Assembly (NCBI GenBank): GCA_004017535.1
Contig: SAJS01000015.1
Coordinates: 103,327 to 167,326, forward strand
Source: Mesorhizobium sp.
GTDB lineage: Bacteria > Pseudomonadota > Alphaproteobacteria > Rhizobiales > Rhizobiaceae
Direction: 5' to 3'
Length of the DNA: 64,000 nt
Positions 1-64,000 of the stretch are shown piece by piece; position 1 is the stretch's first letter; every line of letters starts with the position of its first letter. Under the pieces are notes generated by a model. The model did no database searches. It saw only the letters and a program-made list of their open reading frames with translations, and was not told the DNA's origin. Position numbers and translations under genes: made by a program.

Positions 1-1303
1 CCGAATAGCCGCGCGTGCAGAGTTCGCCAGGTTCGCCGACCGCGACGGTCGCGCCATCCGCGCCGATCGCCTTCACCTCGACATGCGGGTGGATGCGGCC
101 GACCGTGGAGACGCGCTTTTCAAGCGGGTCATCGACACTGCTCTGGAAGGAGACCGGGCTGGTCTCGGTCATGCCATAGGCGATGGTCACCTCAGACATG
201 TGCATGAGCGACACCACCTTCTTCATCACCTCGATCGGGCATGGCGAGCCGGCCATGATACCGGTGCGCAGGCTGGAGAGGTCGAAGCCGGCGAAATCGG
301 CATGGTCGAGCATGGCGACGAACATGGTCGGCACGCCATAGAGCCCGGTGCAGCGCTCCTGCGCGACCGCCTCCAGCGTCGCGCCGGCATCGAAGCCCTC
401 GCCCGGGAAAACCATGGTCGCGCCCTTCGACACGCAGCCCATCGTGCCCATCGACATGCCGAAGCAATGGTAGAGCGGCACCGGGATGCAGAGCCGGTCA
501 TCGACGGTGAGTTTTATGGCCGAGGTGACGAAATTGCCGTTGTTTACGATGTTGGTATGCGTCAGCGTCGCGCCCTTCGGCGCGCCGGTCGTGCCGCTGG
601 TGAACTGGATGTTGATGGCATCTGCAGGCTTCAGGCTCTCCGAGATCCGATCGAGACTGTCGTGCTCGTCGCGGCAGGCCATGGCCAGCACGTCGCCGAA
701 ATTGAACATGCCTGGCGAGTTGTCATCGCCCATGCGGATGACGATCTTCAGCGCCGGCAGCTTCTTCGCCTTGAGCTTGCCGGGCTCCGCCTTAGCGATC
801 TCCGGCGCCAGCGTCTCAATCATGCCGAGATAGTCGGATGTCTTGAACTGGGCCGCCGTGACCAGCGCCTTGCAGCCGACCTTGTTGAGCGCATATTCCA
901 GCTCGGTCAGCCGATAGGCCGGGTTGATGTTGACCAGGATGAGGCCGATGCGGGCGGTGGCAAACTGCGTCACCAGCCATTCCCAGCGGTTCGGCGACCA
1001 GATGCCGACGCGGTCGCCTTTTTCCAGCCCAAGCGCCAGGAAACCGGCGGCCAGGGCGTCGACCGCATCCGAGAGCTCGCTCCAGGTGAAGCGCTTGTCC
1101 TGACCGACGAAGACGGCGGCGTCGAGCGTGGCGTATTTGCTCACCGTATCGGAGAACAGCTCCGGAATGGTCTTGTTGAGCAAAGGCACTGACCGGTCGC
1201 CCGAGACATGCGCCTTGCCGCCGGCCGGGGCAATAAAGGTGCCGCTCGCGCGATACCCGCGCAAATTGGTGGCGTTCATAAGCTCGTCGAGTTTGATCGC
1301 CAT
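1..1303 (-). CDS. AMP-dependent acyl-CoA synthetase, C-terminus beyond window
   Basis: Adenylate-forming ligase that activates a carboxylic acid to its acyl-CoA via an acyl-adenylate. The 434 visible codons begin with [16 protein letters not shown] and carry the ATP-binding loop ([11 protein letters not shown]) and the later YGMTETSP motif, both typical of the ANL superfamily. A GGAGGAAAC ribosome binding site sits just before the ATG, which supports this start. Full-length relatives are about 550 to 560 residues, so roughly the last 125, including the small C-terminal domain with the catalytic lysine, lie outside the window. Medium- or long-chain fatty acids are the likely substrates, but specificity cannot be read from sequence. 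It is transcribed away from hisG and lies 73 bases downstream of it on the same strand. Confidence 0.9.
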
Positions 1304-1376
1304 CGCCGTTTCCTCCCGGGATGATTGACCCTATCAGCCTGCAAAGGCGGTGGAAACCCGCCGAAGGTAGGGAGGG

Positions 1377-2075
1377 CTAACCAACCAAGGCGCCCATCTT
1401 TGCAGCGATTTCCCGCAACCGCGCCTCATCCTCCGCGCCGCGTTGCTTCTTCGAAGCGACCAAACAGGCCTGCGACTTCAGGATCGTACCATCGCCCAGC
1501 ACCTTGAGGTGGTTGGCGCGCAGCGTCGAGCCGGTGGTGGTGATGTCGACGATGACGTCCGCCAGGCCGGCGGCCGGCGCGCCTTCGGTGGCGCCGAGAC
1601 TTTCGACGATGCGGTAGACCTGGATGCCGTGCTTGAGCGAAAAGAACTGCTGCGTCAGCCGCCAGTATTTGGTGGCGATCCGCAGCCGCCGGCCGTGGCG
1701 CTGGCGGAAATCGGCGGCGACATCGTCGAGGTCGGCCATCGTGTCGACATCGAGCCAGATGTCGGGAACGGCAACGACGACATCGGCATGGCCGAAGCCG
1801 AGGCGGGCGACGATCTCGGCGCGCGCTTCCCAGTCGGCGAGGTTCTCGCGCAACAGGTCCTCGCCGGTGATGCCGAGATCGACCGACCCTTGCCCGATCT
1901 CGCCGGCGATCTCGAATGCGGACAGGAAGGCCACCTCGACATTGTCGAGGCCGTCGATACGCGCGCGGTATTTGCGGTCGTCCTCCGGCAGCTTGACGGC
2001 CAGGCCGGCCTTGGCCAGCACTTCGAGGGACTGCTCCTTGAGACGGCCTTTCGACGGGATCGCCAGCGTGATCAT
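1377..2075 (-). CDS. hisG: ATP phosphoribosyltransferase, short form catalytic subunit
   Basis: First enzyme of histidine biosynthesis; condenses ATP with PRPP to phosphoribosyl-ATP. At 232 residues it is the short form, which lacks the C-terminal regulatory domain and works only as a hetero-octamer with HisZ. Visible family features are the opening [11 protein letters not shown], the GITGEDLL segment, and the PRPP-binding stretch [17 protein letters not shown] near residues 170 to 190. Its ATG overlaps the hisZ stop by four bases, so the subunits are probably translationally coupled. A short hairpin (GGCGGGTTTCCACCGCC on the minus strand) with only three T residues follows the stop and might be a weak terminator. 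Confidence 0.96.
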
Positions 2076-3190
2076 TTGGCGCTCTCCCGCAAGGCTTCGA
2101 TGCGGTCGAGCCAGACCGAGAAGCCGACGCCGGGGATGGGCTTCTTGGCGCCAAGCAGCGTCAGCAACCGGTCGTAACGGCCGCCGCCGACAAGCGGACG
2201 ATCGCCTCCCTGGACAGCGATCTCGAAGACGAGGCCGGTATAATAGTCGAGCGGACGGCCGAAGGCGGCGTCGTAACGGATGTGCGCCGCGGGCAGCCCA
2301 TGCGCCTCGATCGCGTTGGCGCGGGCCGCGAAATTCTCCAGCGCCGGTCCCAGCGACAGGCCGGCATCGGCGGCGAATTTTTCAAGCGCCGCGGTCGCGC
2401 CGCTGAGCGCGACGTCGATCTCGAGAAAACCCTTCAGCGCCGAAAAGGCGTCATCGGACAGGCGCACACTGCGCAACTGCGCTTTCTCGATCAGCCGGCG
2501 CGCAATATCGGCCGGAGCCCGGCCGCCGGAAGCCGACAGACCGGCCTCCTCCATGCCTTCGGCAATGTGCGCGGCGAGGCCTTCCTGATCGCCGTCGAGC
2601 ACCAGCAAGGCGACGGGACCGGAGAGCTGACTGTTGCGCGGCGGATTGGCGAGATCGGCAAGGGCCGCTTCCAGCATCGGCGCCGAACCGAAGGCACGGG
2701 CCAGCCGCATGCGCCAGCCGCGCGGCAGGCCGAGCGCCGCCAGCACAGCCTCGAACAAAGTCTGGTCGCCAAGCGTGATGGCGAGGGGCTGTCCAGGCAG
2801 CACCAGCGACAGCAGCGCATGCGCGTCGGCCAGCGAGCGGGCATCGGCGGCGGCGATATCACTGTCGCCGAGATCCTCGATGCCGGCCTGGAAGAACTCG
2901 TTTCCGCCGTCGCGGCGCTGGCGGAACACCTCGCCGAGATAGGAGTAGCGGCGCGGCGTGCCGGCCTGGCTGGCGATGTGGTCGAGGCAGACCGGAATGG
3001 TGAATTCGGGCCGCAGGCACAAAGTCTTGCCGGTCTCGCTTTCGGTCAGGAAGATGCGTCGGCGCAGGTCTTCGCCCGCCATATCGAGGAACGGATCGGC
3101 CGGCTGCAGCACGGCGACTTCGACCGCGTGCGTGTCGCGGACGGCGAAGAGTTTCGTGATGTCGGCGGCGATGGCGGGGCGGGAGGTCAT
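2072..3190 (-). CDS. hisZ: ATP phosphoribosyltransferase regulatory subunit HisZ
   Basis: Paralogue of the histidyl-tRNA synthetase catalytic core that acts as the regulatory subunit of short-form HisG and mediates histidine feedback. The 372 residues include class II synthetase-like motifs: [10 protein letters not shown] near residue 60, GRPLDYYTG near 310 and GGGRYDRL near 335. It has no C-terminal anticodon-binding domain, which separates it from the true HisS encoded upstream. Its end overlaps hisG by four bases. The 178-base gap to hisS holds a palindromic repeat rather than an obvious terminator, so hisS-hisZ-hisG may be one transcript. Confidence 0.95.
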
Positions 3191-3208
3191 GGATAAGTTG
3201 GGCGCGAG

Positions 3209-3371
3209 GCCCCCCTCTCTGTCCTGCCGGACATCTCCCCCTCAAGGAGGGAGATCGGCAGTTCGGGCGCCGCGCCTCCTCCTGCAACGGCGAAAATTGG
3301 CGAAAGCATGCGCGACATCCAATCTCCCCCCTTGAGGGGGAGATGGCCGGCAGGCCAGAGAGGGGGGCTCA
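3209..3371. repeat. Rhizobial palindromic repeat, family A copy 1
   Basis: Two arms in inverted orientation: CTCTCTGTCCTGCCGGACAT around 3213-3234, followed by a CTCCCC-rich block, and the complementary GGGGGAGATGGCCGGCAGG around 3336-3354. The right arm reaches the hisS stop codon. A second copy of the same family lies at 11793-11955. Such short non-coding palindromes are common in rhizobial intergenic DNA. This one sits inside a probable operon, so it is likely transcribed. Confidence 0.85.
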
Positions 3372-4913: not shown

Positions 4914-5035
4914 GGGGTCGGTCTTTTCGTTAAGTAAACACTGGCTTATCGGGAGCGGGCGTGTCCTAACCCATGCCAAGTGGTGCGGCAAGCGTTTGCA
5001 GACCTGCAGGAAACAGTTCGATAGTTTGCAAGCGC

Positions 5036-5217
5036 CGCGCCGCCCCTCATCCGCCTGCCGGCACCTTCTCCCCGTATAGTGACGGGGAGAAGGAGGAAGC
5101 TTCGGCGCCGGCGCGACAGCTCCAGCGTTGACGACTGGCGAAACCCGCGGCGCCAGCGTCCTTCTCCCCGTCACTATACGGGGAGAAGTGGCCGGCAGGG
5201 CGATGAGGGGCAGCGCG
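5036..5217. repeat. Rhizobial palindromic repeat, family B
   Basis: Long inverted repeat in the 467-base gap upstream of hisS. The left arm holds CCCTCATCCGCCTGCCGGCA then CTTCTCCCCGTATAGTGACG; the right arm holds the complement CGTCACTATACGGGGAGAAG followed by a GCCGGCAGGGCGATGAGGGG arm. The inner arms form a near-perfect stem of about 25 bp. The remainder of the gap (4914-5035 and 5218-5380) shows no gene and presumably carries the hisS promoter and that of the small downstream gene. Related single arms occur at 5637-5699 and 8576-8755. Confidence 0.85.
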
Positions 5218-11792: not shown

Positions 11793-11955
11793 CACACCCC
11801 CCTCTGTCCTGCCGGACATCTCCCCCGCAAGGGGGGAGATCAGATGTCGCCTTGGCTTTCGCCAATCTGCAACGTCGCCAGAAAGGCGGGGCGCAGAAAC
11901 TGCCAATCTCCCCCCTTGCGGGGGAGATGTCCGGCAGGACAGAGGGGGGTGTTCA
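11793..11955. repeat. Rhizobial palindromic repeat, family A copy 2
   Basis: Inverted repeat with left arm CCCCCCTCTGTCCTGCCGGA and right arm TCCGGCAGGACAGAGGGGGG, plus inner arms rich in CTCCCC and GGGGAG. It belongs to the same family as 3209-3371 but its arms are longer and better conserved. It fills the gap between glcD and glcE and would fold in the polycistronic message. Confidence 0.9.
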
Positions 11956-57297: not shown

Positions 57298-58740
57298 TCA
57301 TCCCTGAAAATCAAAGGCGCTGAGGCCCGTCACCATCTCGTCGAGACCGAGCGGGCGCGTCACCGGCGGCTCGGCGCGCGCCAGGCAGCCGGCGCGCTCG
57401 CAAAGCCTGCAGGCGGGGCCGACCGGGGTGGCGAAGCCTTGCCCGGACTTGCCGGAGGATCCGGCCGGCAGCGCCGCGCCATAGACGATCTCGTCGCGAA
57501 AGCCGATATCGCAACCGAGCAGGAGCGCGGTGCGGCGCTGCCGCTCGGAGAAGGCGCCTTGCGGGCCTTCCAGCGTGCGGGCGATGCACAGGAACTCGGC
57601 GCCATCGGGCATTTCCACCGCCTCGACCAGGATCTGGCCCGGCTGCGAGAAGGCCGCATGAATGGGAAGCTTGGGGCAGCCGCCGCCGAAGCGGCTTTGC
57701 GGATAACCCTGGCTGCCGGCCTTGCGGAAGCGGTTGCCGGCATTGTCGACCTCCAGCATGAAGAACGGCACGCCCGCCGCGCCCTGCCGCTGCAGCATGG
57801 TCAGGCGGTTGGCCGCCTGTTCGAAAGAGACGCCGAAGCGGGAACGCAGGACGTCGATATCATAGCAGGCGCGAACGGCGGCGGCATGGAAAGCCTGGTA
57901 GGGCATCATCAGGGCGTGCGCGGCATAGCGGCCGAGCTCGAAGCGGGCGAGCCGGCGGGCCTCGTCCGTACCGAGCTTGAGCCCCTGGATCTCGCCCGCG
58001 ACGGCCACCGACATGCGCATCAGGCTCGCCTCCATGGCGACCTCACGCAGCTGATCGAAGGGCGACAGCCGCTCCGACAGGAACAGGCGTTGCGAATGGC
58101 GGTCATAGCGGCGGCGCCAGTTGGGCATGGTGGCGACCGGCAGCACCTTGACGACGATGCCATGCTCGCGCCTCAACCAGGCCTTCAGCGCGCCGAACAG
58201 ATCGTCGCCGGGCTCGAGGAGCGATGTGAAAGCCTCCGCCTCCTCCTCCAGCGCGGCAAAGTGGTTCGGCCGGCGTTCGAACACTTCGTGGAGTTCGTCG
58301 GCGGGCAGGCGCGCGCCGGACAGCGCGGTCGCCCTGCCCTCCTTCGCCAGGAGCTGGTTTAGGTCGGACAGGCGCTCGGTCTGCTCGCGATAGGCGCGAA
58401 AGAGTTTTATCATCGCGGCCGAAGCGTTCGGCGCCGTTTCGGCGAGGTCAATCAACTCCTGATCGCCCGGAAGTTCACCGGTCAGCAGCGGATCGCCGAA
58501 CACTTCCTTCAGCGCCGCGATCGATCCCTTGGCCTCTCTCTGCAATTCATGCGGATCGACCTTGTAGACGGAGGCCAGCTTGAGGATGAGCTGCACCGTC
58601 AGCGGCCGCTGGTTGCGCTCGATGAGGTTGAGGTAGGAGGGCGAGATGCCCAATCCCTCGGCCATCGCCGTCTGGGTCAGCCCCCTGGCGTTGCGCAACC
58701 GGCGCAGCCGAGGCCCGGCAAAGATCTTCTGGTCGGCCAT
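57298..58740 (-). CDS. RamB/ScfR-type regulator (XRE-ImmA/IrrE-DUF2083)
   Basis: 480-residue regulator of the short-chain acyl-CoA-responsive group. The N-terminal XRE helix-turn-helix reads RLRRLRNARGLTQTAMAEGL, GISPSYLNLIERNQRPLTVQ (residues 11-50). The middle has the degenerate ImmA/IrrE-like region (LMMPYQAFHAAAVRACYDID). The DUF2083 C-terminus ends with a cysteine cluster (GPACRLCERAGCLARAEP). The ATG at 58740 follows AAGGGTGGAAGCG. Relatives (RamB in Paracoccus, PccR in Rhodobacter) control acetate and propionate genes; divergence from aceA makes aceA the likely target. Confidence 0.9.
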   Translation of the reverse strand: MADQKIFAGPRLRRLRNARGLTQTAMAEGLGISPSYLNLIERNQRPLTVQLILKLASVYKVDPHELQREAKGSIAALKEVFGDPLLTGELPGDQELIDLAETAPNASAAMIKLFRAYREQTERLSDLNQLLAKEGRATALSGARLPADELHEVFERRPNHFAALEEEAEAFTSLLEPGDDLFGALKAWLRREHGIVVKVLPVATMPNWRRRYDRHSQRLFLSERLSPFDQLREVAMEASLMRMSVAVAGEIQGLKLGTDEARRLARFELGRYAAHALMMPYQAFHAAAVRACYDIDVLRSRFGVSFEQAANRLTMLQRQGAAGVPFFMLEVDNAGNRFRKAGSQGYPQSRFGGGCPKLPIHAAFSQPGQILVEAVEMPDGAEFLCIARTLEGPQGAFSERQRRTALLLGCDIGFRDEIVYGAALPAGSSGKSGQGFATPVGPACRLCERAGCLARAEPPVTRPLGLDEMVTGLSAFDFQG

Positions 58741-58759
58741 CGCTTCCACCCTTGACAAG

Positions 58760-58911
58760 AATTTACAGGCGCATCGAACCCGACGTCCACCTTGCCGCTT
58801 TTACAATCATGACAAATTTACAGAGCGGACCTGTCAATAGCAACACAGCTTTTCCTTTATTTTCGGCGCTAAATGGCGGTTTCCCTGGCGTATTTCGCGC
58901 TGCAATGTAAA
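58760..58911. promoter_or_regulatory. TTTACA repeat operators between RamB-type regulator and aceA
   Basis: The intergenic region holds two long direct repeats, GACAAGAATTTACAGGCG (58754-58771) and GACAAATTTACAGAGCG (58811-58827). A third TTTTACA is at 58799-58805 and an inverted copy TGTAAA at 58906-58911. Repeated AT-rich boxes around a regulator-target pair are what one expects for a RamB/ScfR binding region. Spacing of the two long repeats is 57 or 56 bases, near five helical turns. Confidence 0.55.
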
Positions 58912-58990
58912 CGATGTCACACGCAGACGTCGCGGGATATGCCTTTGCGATGCGGCGCTGAAGCAGTTTTCAAACGATCCGGAGTGACCA

Positions 58991-60280
<1,290 letters not shown>

Positions 60281-60334
60281 CGGATAACAACCAGAGGAAA
60301 CGCCCGCAGGGCATCTACATCGAGGAGAAGACCA

Positions 60335-60577
60335 ATGGCATCGATAAGCCGCGTCAAGGAAAGGGCGGAAGAGCAATCGAGCGCGATGAGCGTCGACCAG
60401 CAGGCGACGATCCGCATGCTTGCCAACGATCTGCACAGGCTCAACCAGTCGGTCATGAAGGCAGTCGAGGCCGGCGTCTCGGTGGAGCTGGTGCGCTCGG
60501 CCAGGCACCATGGCGGCGACGGCAACTGGGGTGACCTGCTGATCCCCGTCATCGTCACCCATCAGAGCCATACTTGA
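60335..60577 (+). CDS. Small conserved-looking protein in the aceA operon
   Basis: 80-residue protein starting MASISRVKERAEEQSSAMSV, with a predicted helical region (QQATIRMLANDLHRLNQSVM KAV... interrupted here for length) and a short C-terminal GNWGDLLIPVIVTHQSHT. GGAGAAGACCA is the ribosome binding site. Because it lies between aceA and the operon terminator, it is almost certainly co-expressed. I do not recognise a characterised family; regulation or stability of isocitrate lyase is a guess from position. Confidence 0.72.
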   Translation: MASISRVKERAEEQSSAMSVDQQATIRMLANDLHRLNQSVMKAVEAGVSVELVRSARHHGGDGNWGDLLIPVIVTHQSHT

Positions 60578-60596
60578 CGTAACGTCAACAGTCTCG

Positions 60597-60644
60597 GCGA
60601 CAGTCTCCCGTGCGTTATACGTTCGGGAGACTGTCGCATTTTTT
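60597..60644 (+). terminator. Strong rho-independent terminator of the aceA operon
   Basis: A 14-bp perfect stem GCGACAGTCTCCCG (60597-60610) with CGGGAGACTGTCGC (60624-60637), loop TGCGTTATACGTT, then A and six T. Confidence 0.92.
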
Positions 60645-60868
60645 CGATTTGCCTTCCTCGTCGGGAGGCACGACTTGCGCTGAATTCGGGATTTTCTTGC
60701 TATATTTTCGGCTTCGACCGTTTCAGCTTGACACCGGCCGCGATCTCACTCAATTCTGCCTCAGGTTTCAACCCTGCATTGAACCAGAGTGCCTCTCCGC
60801 CGATGTGTCCCGCCGACCGTGACGACCACTCCGAAAAACATCCAAGACCGGCTATCCGCGCCGGTGCG

Positions 60869-61252
60869 ATGGCAGCGGACTTGTCGAAGGTGCTGGTCGT
60901 CGGAAAATCATCGATCAACAGGGTCGTGGTGTCGAAAATCGTCGAGAAATCGGGCCTTAAGCCGATCTCGGAATCGCCCGAGGCCGCCGAGAAGACGCTG
61001 GCAGGATATCTGCCCGGCGCGGTCATCCTCGATGGCGGCCCCGACAACAAGGATTGCGACCGGCTGATGTCGGCCATCGACGCGTTGCGGCGCGTCTCCG
61101 GCAAGCCGCTGCCCGCGGTGATCCTGCTTTCAACCAGGAATGGCACGCCGGAAAGCCTAGGCCTGTCGAGCGTGATCGACGCGGTGGTCGCCAAGCCGAT
61201 CATGCCCGAGAGTCTGCAACCGGTGGTCGATCGCCTGACAGGGCGCGGTTAG
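60869..61252 (+). CDS. Degenerate response-regulator receiver-like protein
   Basis: 127-residue single domain with receiver topology: first strand KVLVVGKSSINRVVVSKIVE, second region GAVILDGGPDN with Asp55 at the phosphorylation position, LPAVILLSTRNG with Ser/Thr, and VVAKPIMPESLQPVV with Lys109. The acidic pair that binds Mg at the end of the first strand in normal receivers is replaced by Gly-Lys, so conventional phosphorylation is doubtful. The ATG at 60869 starts at the homologous region; the longer frame upstream looks non-coding. No kinase gene is adjacent. Confidence 0.75.
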   Translation: MAADLSKVLVVGKSSINRVVVSKIVEKSGLKPISESPEAAEKTLAGYLPGAVILDGGPDNKDCDRLMSAIDALRRVSGKPLPAVILLSTRNGTPESLGLSSVIDAVVAKPIMPESLQPVVDRLTGRG

Positions 61253-61264
61253 ACTCTAGAGCCT

Positions 61265-61987
61265 TCAACCGGCCTTTGCGATAGCCTCGACAAGGTTCGG
61301 CAACTCGCCGAGATGGGCAATCTGGCGGAAACGCGGCGCCTCGACAGGCGCCTCGGCATGTTCGATTGCCCAGGTCAATTCGTGCGGCACATGGATGCCC
61401 CAACCGCCGGCCTCGATCGCGGGAACCACGTCGGACTTGAGGGAATTGCCAACCATCATGCTGCTCTGCGGACCACGGCCATGGCGGCTGAAGATGCGGG
61501 CATAGGTGGCGGCGGTCTTGTCGCTGACAATCTCCACCGCGTCGAAGAGGTCACCCATTCCCGACTGCGCAAGCTTGCGCTCCTGATCGAAGAGGTCGCC
61601 CTTGGTGATCAGCACCAGATGATAGGAGCCCGCCAGCGCCTTGACCGTCTCGCGCGCATGCGGCAGCGGCTCGATCGGGTGGCTGAGCATCTCACGGCCG
61701 GCGGCCAGGATCTCGCCGATCATCGAACCAGGCACCTCACCACCGGTGATCTCGACCGCCGTCTCGATCATCGACAGGGTAAAACCCTTGATGCCGAAGC
61801 CGTAGAGGGCGAGGTTGCGCCTTTCCGCCTCGAGCAGCCTTGCCGCGATATGCTCATGGTCGCCGTGCTCCACCAGCATTTCGGCAAAGCGCTTCTCAGT
61901 CATGCGGAAGAACTGTTCATTCTGCCACAGCGTGTCGTCGGCATCGAAGCCGATCGTGGTCAAATGAGAGGCGGGCCCGTTCTTCAT
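61265..61987 (-). CDS. HAD-superfamily hydrolase
   Basis: 240-residue phosphatase-like protein. Motif I is GFDADDTLWQNE (Asp nucleophile near residue 14), motif II LITKGD near 130, motif III Lys in VSDKTAATYARIF, and motif IV MVGNSLKSDVVPAIEAGGWG near 180. A helical cap lies between I and II (FAEMLVEHGDHEHIAARLLE). The ATG at 61987 is chosen because upstream residues cross into the divergent glutamine-synthetase gene. Substrate unknown. Convergent with the receiver-like gene. Confidence 0.9.
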   Translation of the reverse strand: MKNGPASHLTTIGFDADDTLWQNEQFFRMTEKRFAEMLVEHGDHEHIAARLLEAERRNLALYGFGIKGFTLSMIETAVEITGGEVPGSMIGEILAAGREMLSHPIEPLPHARETVKALAGSYHLVLITKGDLFDQERKLAQSGMGDLFDAVEIVSDKTAATYARIFSRHGRGPQSSMMVGNSLKSDVVPAIEAGGWGIHVPHELTWAIEHAEAPVEAPRFRQIAHLGELPNLVEAIAKAG

Positions 61988-62114
61988 GACGGCCGGTGTA
62001 CCTGCTGTTGCGGCGCGCCGCCAGCCTGAAGACGGATGCCTGGTTGTCCCGCCTCCCCTTCCCTTCCCCCGTGGCGCCCGGCTATAGTCCGAAATCCGCA
62101 ACACAATCTGGTGA

Positions 62115-63551
62115 ATGATGCCGCCTGAAAAAAAGGAAGTCCGTCCGTCAAGCCGGGGGGGACGCGCCCGCACGCCTGCCTTCCTGAAAAACGAACGCGG
62201 TGTGAAGAACTGGAAGGAAGCCAGCGCCTGGCTGGAGTGGCGCGGCATCGAGGACATCGAATGCATCACGCCGGACCAGGCCGGCGTCGCCCGCGGCAAG
62301 ATGATGCCGTCGAAGAAATTCACCTCCAACACCTCGCTGGCGCTGCCTTCGGCCGTGTTCATGACGACGATCTCGGGCGGCTATCCGGAAGACGGCAACG
62401 GCTTCCACTACCCTGAGGACGACGGCGACCTGAAGCTCTTGCCCGATCTCTCGACGCTGACCGTGGTGCCGTGGGAAGAGGACCCGACGGCGGCGGTGAT
62501 CTGCGACCTCGTGCACCAGGATGGCCGCTCGGTCGAGTTCACGCCGCGCAACGTGCTGAAGCGCGTGCTTGCGGCATATGACGAGCGCGGGCTCAAACCG
62601 GTCGTGGCGCCCGAGATCGAATTCTATCTGGTGCGCAAGAACCCCGATCCGGACTATCCGCTGACGCCGCCCGTCGGGCGTTCGGGGCGGCCGATCGGCG
62701 GCGGCGCTGGCTATTCGATCGCCGGCGTCAACGAGTTCGACGAGTTGATCGACGACATCTACCATTTCTCGGAACGGCAGGGCCTGGAGATCGACACGCT
62801 GATCCATGAGGAAGGTGCCGGCCAGCTCGAGATCAATTTGCGGCACGGCAACCCGATCGAGCTCGCCGACCAGGTGTTCATGTTCAAGCGCACCATCCGC
62901 GAGGCGGCGCTGAAGCACGAGATCTACGCCACCTTCATGGCAAAGCCGATTCAGGGACAGCCGGGCTCGGCCATGCACATCCACCAGTCCGTGGTCGACA
63001 AGAAGACCGGCAAGAACATCTTCTCGGCCGAGGACGGCTCCGAGACAGACGCTTTCTTCCACTTCATCGGCGGCATGCAAAAGCATGTGCCGAACGCGCT
63101 GGTGATGTTCGCGCCTTACGTCAACTCCTACCGCCGGCTGACGCAACAGGCCTCGGCTCCGGTCAACAACAAATGGGGCTACGACAACCGCACCACCGCC
63201 TTCCGCGTGCCGCGCTCGGACCCGGCGGCGCGGCGCGTCGAAAACCGCATCCCGTCGTCGGACGCCAACCCTTACCTCGCGCTTGCGGCCTCGCTGGCCT
63301 GCGGGCTGGTGGGCATGAACAACAAGATCAAGGCGGAACCGCCGGTGCTGACGACCGCCAACGCGGATGAAATCGACCTGCCGCGCGGCCTTCTGGAGGC
63401 GGTCGGCCTCTTCGAGGACGATACGGAGCTCGGCGCCATCCTCGGCAAATCCTTCGCCGCTACCTACACCGCGATCAAACGCGCCGAGTTCGAGACCTTC
63501 ATGGAAGTGATCAGCCCGTGGGAGCGAGAGTATCTGTTGCTGAATGTCTAG
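62115..63551 (+). CDS. Glutamine synthetase family protein, gamma-glutamylpolyamine synthetase-like
   Basis: 478-residue catalytic-domain glutamine-synthetase homologue. Visible active-site motifs are VVAPEIEFYLVRKNP near 170, EGAGQLEINLRHGNP near 235, MHIHQSVVDKKTGKN near 290, and NNKWGYDNRTTAFRVPRSD near 350. Such rhizobial paralogues are often PuuA- or GlnT-like and ligate glutamate to polyamines or other amines rather than ammonia. The potFGHI importer 8 kb away makes a polyamine role reasonable. The stop codon TAG is the first triplet of a (TAGGGGAG)4 array leading into the next gene. Confidence 0.88.
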   Translation: MMPPEKKEVRPSSRGGRARTPAFLKNERGVKNWKEASAWLEWRGIEDIECITPDQAGVARGKMMPSKKFTSNTSLALPSAVFMTTISGGYPEDGNGFHYPEDDGDLKLLPDLSTLTVVPWEEDPTAAVICDLVHQDGRSVEFTPRNVLKRVLAAYDERGLKPVVAPEIEFYLVRKNPDPDYPLTPPVGRSGRPIGGGAGYSIAGVNEFDELIDDIYHFSERQGLEIDTLIHEEGAGQLEINLRHGNPIELADQVFMFKRTIREAALKHEIYATFMAKPIQGQPGSAMHIHQSVVDKKTGKNIFSAEDGSETDAFFHFIGGMQKHVPNALVMFAPYVNSYRRLTQQASAPVNNKWGYDNRTTAFRVPRSDPAARRVENRIPSSDANPYLALAASLACGLVGMNNKIKAEPPVLTTANADEIDLPRGLLEAVGLFEDDTELGAILGKSFAATYTAIKRAEFETFMEVISPWEREYLLLNV

Positions 63552-63580
63552 GGGAGTAGGGGAGTAGGGGAGTAGGGGAG
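63549..63580. repeat. (TAGGGGAG)4 array upstream of the four-helix-bundle gene
   Basis: Four perfect copies of the 8-mer TAGGGGAG; the first TAG is the stop codon of the glutamine-synthetase-like gene. The array ends 8 bases before the GTG of the next gene and is G-rich enough to serve in place of a ribosome binding site. The reverse complement CTCCCCTA is repeated at 63961-64000. Confidence 0.97.
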
Positions 63581-63588
63581 TAGGACGG

Positions 63589-63957
63589 GTGGCCGAAAAG
63601 ACAGGTTCCTACAAGGATTTGGTAGTCTGGCAGCAGGCGATGGATTTGGCTGTGTCGGTCTACGGTGCGACAAAATCCTGGCCCAAGGAAGAACTCTATG
63701 GGCTGACCAGCCAAGTGCGCCGCTGCGCGACTTCGGTGCCGTCAAATATAGCCGAGGGTTACGGCAGAGAGTTACGGGGTCCCTATCAGCAGTTTCTCCG
63801 CATCGCTCAAGGGTCGCTGAAGGAATTAGAAACGCAGCTTTTGATCGCTGAACGCATCGGTATCGCGTCACAACAAACGACGGCTTCATTGCTAGCCAGT
63901 GCCGAAAGTGTGGGAAAGCTTCTTCGACTTTTGATTCGAAAATTAGCAGCCGACTAG
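63589..63957 (+). CDS. Four-helix-bundle protein, 23S rRNA IVS/S23 family
   Basis: 122-residue protein starting GTG (MAEKTGSYKDLVVWQQAMDL). The pattern YKDLVVWQQAMDLAVSVY, LTSQVRRCATSVPSNIAEGY, GRELRGPYQQFLRIAQGSLK, ELETQLLIAERIG is diagnostic of the IVS (S23) four-helix-bundle family. These were first found in intervening sequences of 23S rRNA and are related to Avd accessory proteins. They form pentamers, and their role is unknown. Base composition appears more AT-rich than its neighbours. The gene is enclosed by inverted 8-mer arrays, so its transcript could fold into a long stem with the gene in the loop. Confidence 0.92.
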   Translation: MAEKTGSYKDLVVWQQAMDLAVSVYGATKSWPKEELYGLTSQVRRCATSVPSNIAEGYGRELRGPYQQFLRIAQGSLKELETQLLIAERIGIASQQTTASLLASAESVGKLLRLLIRKLAAD

Positions 63958-63960
63958 CTT

Positions 63961-64000
63961 TCCCCTACTCCCCTACTCCCCTACTCCCCTACTCCCCTAC
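63961..64000. repeat. (CTCCCCTA)n array downstream of the four-helix-bundle gene
   Basis: One partial (TCCCCTA) and four perfect units of CTCCCCTA reach the window edge and probably continue beyond. It begins 4 bases after the stop codon of the four-helix-bundle gene and is the exact reverse complement of the array at 63549-63580. Confidence 0.97.

What the first reader, a model, noticed from the sequence alone, without database searches (positions are those of the whole stretch)
63549..64000. IVS/S23-type four-helix-bundle gene bracketed by inverted 8-mer arrays
Seen: (TAGGGGAG)4 before and CTCCCCTA repeats after a 122-residue gene, exact reverse complements over at least 32 bases and within 8 and 4 bases of the coding ends. 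The first unit also forms the stop codon of the upstream gene. Known: IVS proteins were discovered in intervening sequences in 23S rRNA, whose ends pair into a stem and are cut out by RNase III. Inference: this is a chromosomal cassette with IVS-like architecture, inserted just at a stop codon, whose RNA could fold into one long stem enclosing the gene. It may be a mobile or RNA-excised element. The arrays may also vary in unit number.
Basis: partly seen in the sequence, partly recalled or inferred. Interest (0 to 1): 0.75.

Follow-up and report, generated by a model that had tools for sequence, protein, structure and literature searches.

The report
Small-protein gene inside mirror-image repeat arrays
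A small bacterial gene, from a family first found interrupting ribosomal RNA, sits inside two mirror-image arrays of a short repeat; relatives in many bacteria do too, and gene-less copies of such arrays are scattered through genomes that carry a gene with matching arrays, which offers a testable origin for a common but unexplained kind of bacterial repeat.

Summary
Observation confirmed, and it generalises. (TAGGGGAG)4.5 and its complement (5 units) bracket a PF05635 (23S intervening-sequence protein, IVP) gene between a puuA-like and a puuB-like gene. All three IVP genes found in this genome have inverted 7/8-mer arms, each with a different unit. Against shifted-interval controls (99th percentile) the arms are present at 32/32 genus, 27/27 family, 12/19 phylum and 57/77 multi-phylum loci. 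One IVP inside a 23S rRNA gene has them; the Xanthomonas IVP has GGGAATC-type arms, a heptamer published as a dispersed repeat. Gene-less arrays are dispersed at 3' ends of genes; for 3 of 3 units tested they are commoner in genomes whose IVP has arms of that unit. IVP is under purifying selection, sits at six sites in genus plus family, and unit follows protein clade. Best reading: a resident IVP with unit-matched dispersed hairpins, working like RAYT/REPIN but with an unrelated protein lacking any known catalytic domain; rRNA IVSs would be the same element in a special place. Trans action, RNA excision and copying are inferred. Against: arms not detected at 27 of 96 distant loci, phylogeny-controlled tests underpowered, TAGGGGAG itself not dispersed in this genome.

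The parts
62115..63551 (+). upstream gene: glutamine-synthetase catalytic family, puuA-like, 478 aa; its TAG stop is the first three bases of the left array
   Evidence: PF00120 343.6 bits; gamma-glutamylputrescine-synthetase model 217 bits, below its cut-off, so the name puuA is by context
63549..63584 (+). left array, 4.5 x TAGGGGAG; purine-rich 5' arm of the stem; may also serve as ribosome-binding region of the IVP gene (inference)
63589..63957 (+). IVP gene, 122 aa, PF05635 / TIGR02436 four-helix-bundle protein
   Evidence: PF05635 125.9 bits, cut-off 33.8; NF008911 177 bits, cut-off 137; homologues of solved structure 2gsc and 2rld
63961..64000 (+). right array, 5 x TCCCCTAC in the window, cut by the contig end; pyrimidine-rich 3' arm of the stem
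   Evidence: continues in contig C11
63549..64000 (+). whole element as far as the window holds it: array - IVP gene - inverted array

Best explanation
The element is one copy of a widespread two-part system. Part one: a resident gene for an IVP (PF05635) protein, nested between inverted arrays of a 7/8-base unit, placed in the sense direction in the short gap between two co-directional genes, right behind the stop codon. Part two: gene-less inverted arrays of the same unit dispersed at the 3' ends of other genes. Works like RAYT/REPIN: a conserved single gene acts in trans on short hairpin elements whose sequence matches the arms round its own gene. Proposed mechanism: the operon transcript folds into a stem of about five units; the IVP pentamer recognises the purine-rich unit of the hairpin (possibly one unit per subunit), RNase III can cut the stem as in rRNA IVSs, and rare copying of the hairpin to new 3'-end sites plus arm-to-arm correction keeps both arms alike. 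Shown: anatomy, breadth, unit match between arms, unit match between IVP clade and dispersed arrays, purifying selection. Inferred: binding, RNase III cutting, trans action, and the copying step, for which no enzyme was identified.
For: Arms versus shifted intervals in the same loci (99th percentile): 32/32 genus, 27/27 family, 12/19 phylum, 57/77 multi-phylum; 69 of 73 scorable further genus loci above the maximum. Best period 7, 8 or 14 in 32/32, 27/27, 14/15 and 53/57 loci with arms; 5' arm purine-rich in 124 of 131, controls 137 of 292. Dispersed arrays, counts outside fetched IVP loci, genomes with versus without an IVP of that unit: TAGCGAA median 10.5 vs 0 (p 1.6e-5), TGAATGG 14.5 vs 0 (p 8.2e-6), TAGGCAG 18 vs 5 (p 5.5e-4); of 12 mismatched cells the lowest p is 0.015; reversed-pattern control 0 in 146 genomes for all three. 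GGGAATC: 5 of 34 IVP-bearing genomes have it, the three Xanthomonas, Luteimonas and Dokdonella, 16-125 matches each; 29 have none. Unit label changes 10 times on the IVP protein tree of 127 loci, shuffled mean 78.6. dN/dS medians 0.06-0.08. Stem length median 4.7 seven-base units, IQR 4.3-5.6, homologue 2gsc a homopentamer (PMC4990558, passages). IVP inside 23S rRNA with heptamer arms (L366).
Against: Independent-pair tests that control for kinship go the same way for all three units but are not significant (for example >=10 matches: 4.5:0.4, 4.7:0.3, 4.7:0.2; median p 0.125 each). 7 of 28 IVP-less genus genomes still carry TAGCGAA arrays. At the puuA site the unit of a gene-less array matches an IVP unit of the same genome in only 12 of 44 (permuted mean 7.4; 79 of 5000 reach it). 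In the window's own genome TAGGGGAG arrays were found only at this locus, and dispersal of that unit was not tested in other genomes. IVP gene copies hardly move: six sites, site label changes 6 on the tree. Arms not detected at 7 of 19 phylum and 20 of 77 multi-phylum loci, and at 3 of 8 plasmid loci (L363, L364, L365 weak). No transposase, RT or catalytic domain was found in the IVP.
Confidence: 0.5

Rival explanations
1. The arrays are host 3'-end hairpins (terminator or mRNA-end structures) that grow by slippage and are kept palindromic by template switching between the arms; IVP genes are passengers lodged in the loops of some of them and the protein does not act on other arrays.
For: Gene-less arrays lie at 3' ends: 22 convergent, 17 tandem, 0 divergent, 3 undetermined of 42 loci, against 8, 22 and 9 of 39 window gene pairs (loci are the first listed, some share a site). 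Arrays are old and stable at atpD-atpC: 27 of 30 nearest relatives carry one there, in two unit families. Arrays occur in IVP-less genomes.
Against: Unit-specific association with the resident IVP for three of three units and IVP clade predicting the unit are not expected; arms also enclose IVP in 23S rRNA, which is not a 3' end.
Confidence: 0.27
2. RNA-only reading: a chromosomal IVS. The stem is cut by RNase III so that the IVP segment is released from the operon mRNA; arrays are there for processing and the gene-less ones are decayed remnants, with no trans system.
For: Long stem with z -7.35; sense orientation between co-directional genes, ++ in 131 of 136 genus plus family loci, the rest undetermined on one side or +- once, window background 12 of 38; Coxiella IVS has tandem heptamers at its 5' side and RNase III cuts at the first (PMC4990558, passages); at the puuA site 60 of 145 alleles have IVP, 51 are gene-less, 24 empty, 10 not resolved.
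Against: Does not explain dispersed arrays at many other sites nor their unit match. The 136 loci are only six sites, so the orientation count is not 136 independent events.
Confidence: 0.13
3. Ordinary DNA transposon or MITE pair with the arrays as terminal inverted repeats and IVP as transposase.
For: Inverted ends, empty sites and gene-less short copies.
Against: No catalytic domain; no target duplication could be recognised at the puuA site, whose empty gap is mostly 6 bases; IVP copies sit at six sites; arms differ in unit between copies.
Confidence: 0.05
4. G-quadruplex regulatory repeat, as proposed for Xanthomonas and Nostoc heptamers.
For: TAGGGGAG and GGGAATC hold G runs; PMC4692102 reports G4 formation of its repeats in vitro (passages).
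Against: Most other units (TAGCGAA, TGAATGG, TAGGCAG, TAGTGAG, TTGAAGAA) have no run of three G; the shared feature is the purine-rich inverted 7/8-mer.
Confidence: 0.03

Closest known systems
23S rRNA intervening sequences (IVS) with an S23/IVP ORF
   Same: Same protein family; inverted ends forming a long stem round the ORF; in Coxiella the 5' side carries 2-3 GACAGAT heptamers of variable number (PMC4990558, passages); an Azospirillum 23S IVS has inverted heptamer arms.
   Different: This copy lies between protein genes at a stop codon, not in rRNA; unit matched by dispersed gene-less arrays for other units was not part of the passages read.
RAYT / REPIN system
   Same: Resident, conserved gene flanked by the repeat it is linked with; short dispersed inverted hairpins; more hairpins in genomes that keep the gene (PMC8049555, passages).
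   Different: IVP is a four-helix bundle with no tyrosine-transposase domain; arms are tandem 7/8-mer arrays; the unit differs between clades.
Dispersed heptamer repeats of Xanthomonas (GGGAATC) and Nostoc
   Same: Same heptamer type as the arms of the Xanthomonas and Luteimonas IVP gene; 70-75 convergent pairs per genome reported (PMC4692102, passages).
   Different: The paper treats them as G4 repeats; the terms 23S, intervening, four helix, S23 and XCC0516 have 0 occurrences in it.
Avd protein of diversity-generating retroelements
   Same: Related fold according to PMC10053308 (passages); weak bAvd match.
   Different: bAvd score 21 bits, cut-off 40; no RT was seen beside this gene within the window's ORFs that I examined (58000-64000).

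Membership tests
PF05635 23S rRNA-intervening sequence protein | profile match over the curated cut-off | tested here: met
   125.9 bits against 33.8; TIGR02436 118.9 against 24
23S rRNA IVS | lies inside a 23S rRNA gene | tested here: not met
   lies between a glutamine-synthetase-type and an FAD-oxidoreductase gene
23S rRNA IVS | complementary ends forming a long stem | tested here: met
   36 exact bases, fold z -7.35
23S rRNA IVS | excision of the RNA by RNase III | not testable with these tools
   needs RNA data
RAYT/REPIN | gene codes for a Y1 HUH transposase | tested here: not met
   only 23S_rRNA_IVP and a sub-cut-off bAvd match in Pfam
RAYT/REPIN | dispersed inverted hairpins related to the gene's own flanks | tested here: inconclusive
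   met for three other units across the genus; not met for TAGGGGAG in this genome
IS element / MITE | target-site duplication | tested here: inconclusive
   empty and filled puuA sites compared; gap too short and divergent to see one
diversity-generating retroelement (Avd) | bAvd profile over cut-off | tested here: not met
   21 bits, cut-off 40

The most novel reading that the evidence does not exclude
IVP genes and heptamer arrays form a distinct, very widespread genetic system: a ring-shaped four-helix protein without catalytic domain reads a clade-specific 7/8-base unit (about one unit per subunit of its pentamer) and in trans maintains and spreads gene-less hairpin arrays of that unit to the 3' ends of genes; rRNA intervening sequences, the Xanthomonas and Nostoc heptamer repeats and much of the unexplained intergenic heptamer excess of prokaryotes are members or products of it.
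Probability: 0.35. Interest if true: 0.92.

Novelty: new variant of a known kind. Interest (0 to 1): 0.8.

Why it matters
A survey of 7006 prokaryotic genomes found tandem heptamers to be the most abundant repeats between genes in a wide range of species and stated that there was no clear clue to their function (PMC6344855, passages). The origin and use of rRNA intervening sequences is also called unclear (PMC4990558, passages). The link shown here, one protein family inside inverted heptamer arms in many phyla with unit-matched gene-less arrays, joins the two questions and makes both testable with one purified small protein and one deletion strain. In the held papers, searches did not turn up a paper that makes this link; papers outside that library were not searched.

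Tried and rejected
Rejected or weakened: (1) chance: excluded. (2) Arms alike only because loci are related: within-locus pairs beat mispaired arms from other loci (multi-phylum mean 19.9 against 9.2); within the genus the mispaired control is less telling because many loci share a site and unit (32.9 against 23.0). (3) A first orientation count with a general coding score gave wrong strands in GC-rich loci (it called puuA antisense); it was dropped for a codon model trained on the window, which may be less reliable outside the family. (4) Wider arms (300 bases) give 52 of 77 over the 99th percentile and only 4 over the control maximum of 32, so weak loci among the distant ones are uncertain. 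(5) (GGGAATC)3 in 398 phylum genomes hit only 3, not useful. (6) Association at the puuA site alone is weak. (7) Left and right arms of puuA-site IVP alleles share unit variants (Spearman 0.65, 55 of 60 alleles with countable units, 0 of 2000 permutations), but descent alone could do this. (8) State of the puuA site (IVP, gene-less, empty; 135 genomes) needs 44 changes on a tree of 400 puuA bases, shuffled mean 58.6: turnover is high, but the tree is poorly resolved, so the number is not a count of events. Rows dropped: L049 and L084 (coordinates off near contig ends); L076, L083, L085 left out of the phylum count as same-genus; loci with under 100 bases of flank (genus 33 to 32, phylum 20 to 19, multi-phylum 80 to 77); of 74 further genus loci one was too near a contig end; pairs with dS outside 0.05-1 left out of dN/dS. 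The genus IVP list was itself cut; its weaker matches were not fetched. Structure prediction was not run.

Full report
What is there. At 63549-64000 a PF05635 gene (122 aa, 63589-63957) stands between 4.5 copies of TAGGGGAG and 5 copies of the complementary octamer; the arms are exact reverse complements over 36 bases and the first TAG is the stop codon of the upstream glutamine-synthetase-type gene. The window ends with contig C6 inside the right array; contig C11 ends in the same array and leads, reversed, into an FAD-oxidoreductase gene, the order seen in relatives. The RNA can fold into one long stem round the gene.

It is not alone in its genome. A PF05635 search of the genome gives three genes. 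The other two lie between an ATP-grasp and an Alpha-E gene and between a TolB and an OmpA-family gene. Both have inverted arms too, but of other units: TAGCGAATAGGGAAT-like and GAATTGAAGAATTGAGG-like.

How general it is. PF05635 is found in 118 of 146 genus, 47 of 151 family and 44 of 249 phylum genomes. For loci fetched from these searches and 80 named loci from a scan with the Xanthomonas homologue, the 200 bases on either side of the gene were aligned to each other as reverse complements, and gene-sized intervals shifted within the same loci served as control. Over the 99th percentile of controls: 32 of 32 (genus), 27 of 27 (family), 12 of 19 (phylum), 57 of 77 (multi-phylum: Pseudomonadota, Bacteroidota, Planctomycetota, Chloroflexota, candidate phyla and others). 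Of 74 further genus loci, 69 of 73 scorable ones pass. Best period is 7, 8 or 14 in almost all loci with arms, and the 5' arm is purine-rich in 124 of 131, control 137 of 292. Of 8 plasmid loci fetched out of 28 plasmid records with a match, 5 have clear arms.

Two links to known things. The Azospirillum plasmid locus L366 is an IVP inside a 23S rRNA gene (Rfam LSU_rRNA_bacteria, 2471.6 bits over 292-3285) and has inverted heptamer arms; Coxiella's 23S IVS has variable GACAGAT heptamers before its ORF and RNase III cuts at the first (PMC4990558, passages). The Xanthomonas and Luteimonas IVP lies between a biotinyl-carrier and a biotin-carboxylase gene with GGGAATC-type arms; that heptamer is the dispersed repeat of PMC4692102, which reports 70 and 75 convergent pairs in two genomes and does not mention the protein (passages). 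All three Xanthomonas, the Luteimonas and the Dokdonella genome have 16-125 matches to two and a half units of it; 29 other IVP-bearing genomes have none. For Dokdonella no GGGAATC arms were seen at its IVP, and taxonomy is confounded with unit here.

One site in 145 genomes. Between puuA and puuB, 60 alleles hold an IVP (two of them cut short, L113 and L175), 51 a gene-less spacer of 51-210 bases, 24 are empty (5-35 bases, mostly 6), one long spacer without a recognised IVP and 9 are cut by contig ends. Of the 51 gene-less spacers 44 hold at least two copies of a known unit (TAGCGAA 21, TGAATGG 19, others 4), and 34 of 51 form a stem scoring 14 or more. So the same gap has been held by different unit families, by gene and gene-less forms, or by nothing.

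Dispersed gene-less arrays. Patterns of about two and a half units are found in 81 (TAGCGAA), 59 (TGAATGG) and 105 (TAGGCAG) of 146 genus genomes; the reversed control in none. Of 30 TAGCGAA loci looked at, 3 hold an IVP; in 16 of the other 27 a strict pattern also finds the inverted partner close by. Gene-less loci lie between convergent (22) or tandem (17) genes, never between divergent ones (0; 3 undetermined; 42 loci), against 8, 22 and 9 of 39 pairs in the window. At atpD-atpC 27 of the 30 nearest relatives carry an array, in two unit families with both arms changed together; two have an unrelated spacer and one a longer insert.

The unit match. For each of the three units, array matches outside the fetched IVP loci are more numerous in genomes that have an IVP with arms of that unit: TAGCGAA median 10.5 vs 0, p 1.6e-5; TGAATGG 14.5 vs 0, p 8.2e-6; TAGGCAG 18 vs 5, p 5.5e-4. 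Of 12 mismatched combinations 11 have p above 0.05 and one 0.015. Kinship-controlled pairs agree in direction for all three but do not reach significance (median p 0.125 at the highest threshold). IVP classes were assigned from fetched loci only, so some genomes may be misplaced.

The protein. dN/dS medians are 0.06-0.08 in five classes. The unit label needs 10 changes on the protein tree of 127 loci against 78.6 for shuffled labels, the site label 6 on 126 loci: gene, unit and site travel together, with unit switches at two of the sites. All but five of 136 genus and family loci are called in the sense direction between two co-directional genes (131 ++; one +-; four with one side undetermined), but they are only six sites.

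Reading. The gene-bearing form is a stable resident, the gene-less hairpins are the form that is widespread, and the two share their unit. That is how RAYT and REPINs behave (PMC8049555, passages), with a protein of a different kind. The stem length, median 4.7 seven-base units, fits a pentameric protein (2gsc; pentamer according to PMC4990558), a suggestion only. Binding, RNase III cutting, trans action and copying are inferences. The main rival, host 3'-end hairpins with IVP as passenger, is kept at 0.27.

Noticed in passing
window 3201-3290 and 11794-11850: Two long palindromic repeats share the core TGTCCTGCCGGACATCTCCCCC; REP-like dispersed palindromes of another kind, without 7/8-base periodicity.
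   Followed up: no
window 5024-5140: A further long imperfect palindrome (score 44) in the window, not periodic.
   Followed up: no
window 64000; contigs C6 and C11: Both contigs of the assembly end inside the array; several relatives' contigs end in these arrays too (L115, L120, L124, L132, L186, L205, L208, L214), so the arrays break assemblies and are under-counted.
   Followed up: partly
L243, L457-L486: A gene-less inverted array sits between the ATP-synthase beta and epsilon genes in 27 of 30 relatives, in two unit families.
   Followed up: partly
L113 and L175: Truncated IVP genes at the puuA site; in L113 the cut gene runs straight into the puuB start and the right array is missing.
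   Followed up: no
G518: A genome with two IVP genes has 9 matches to CTAAGGG heptamers, the read-backwards control of the GGGAATC search; possibly its own unit.
   Followed up: no
L477: At the atpD-atpC gap this genome has a 257-base insert with an ORF-like end instead of an array.
   Followed up: no
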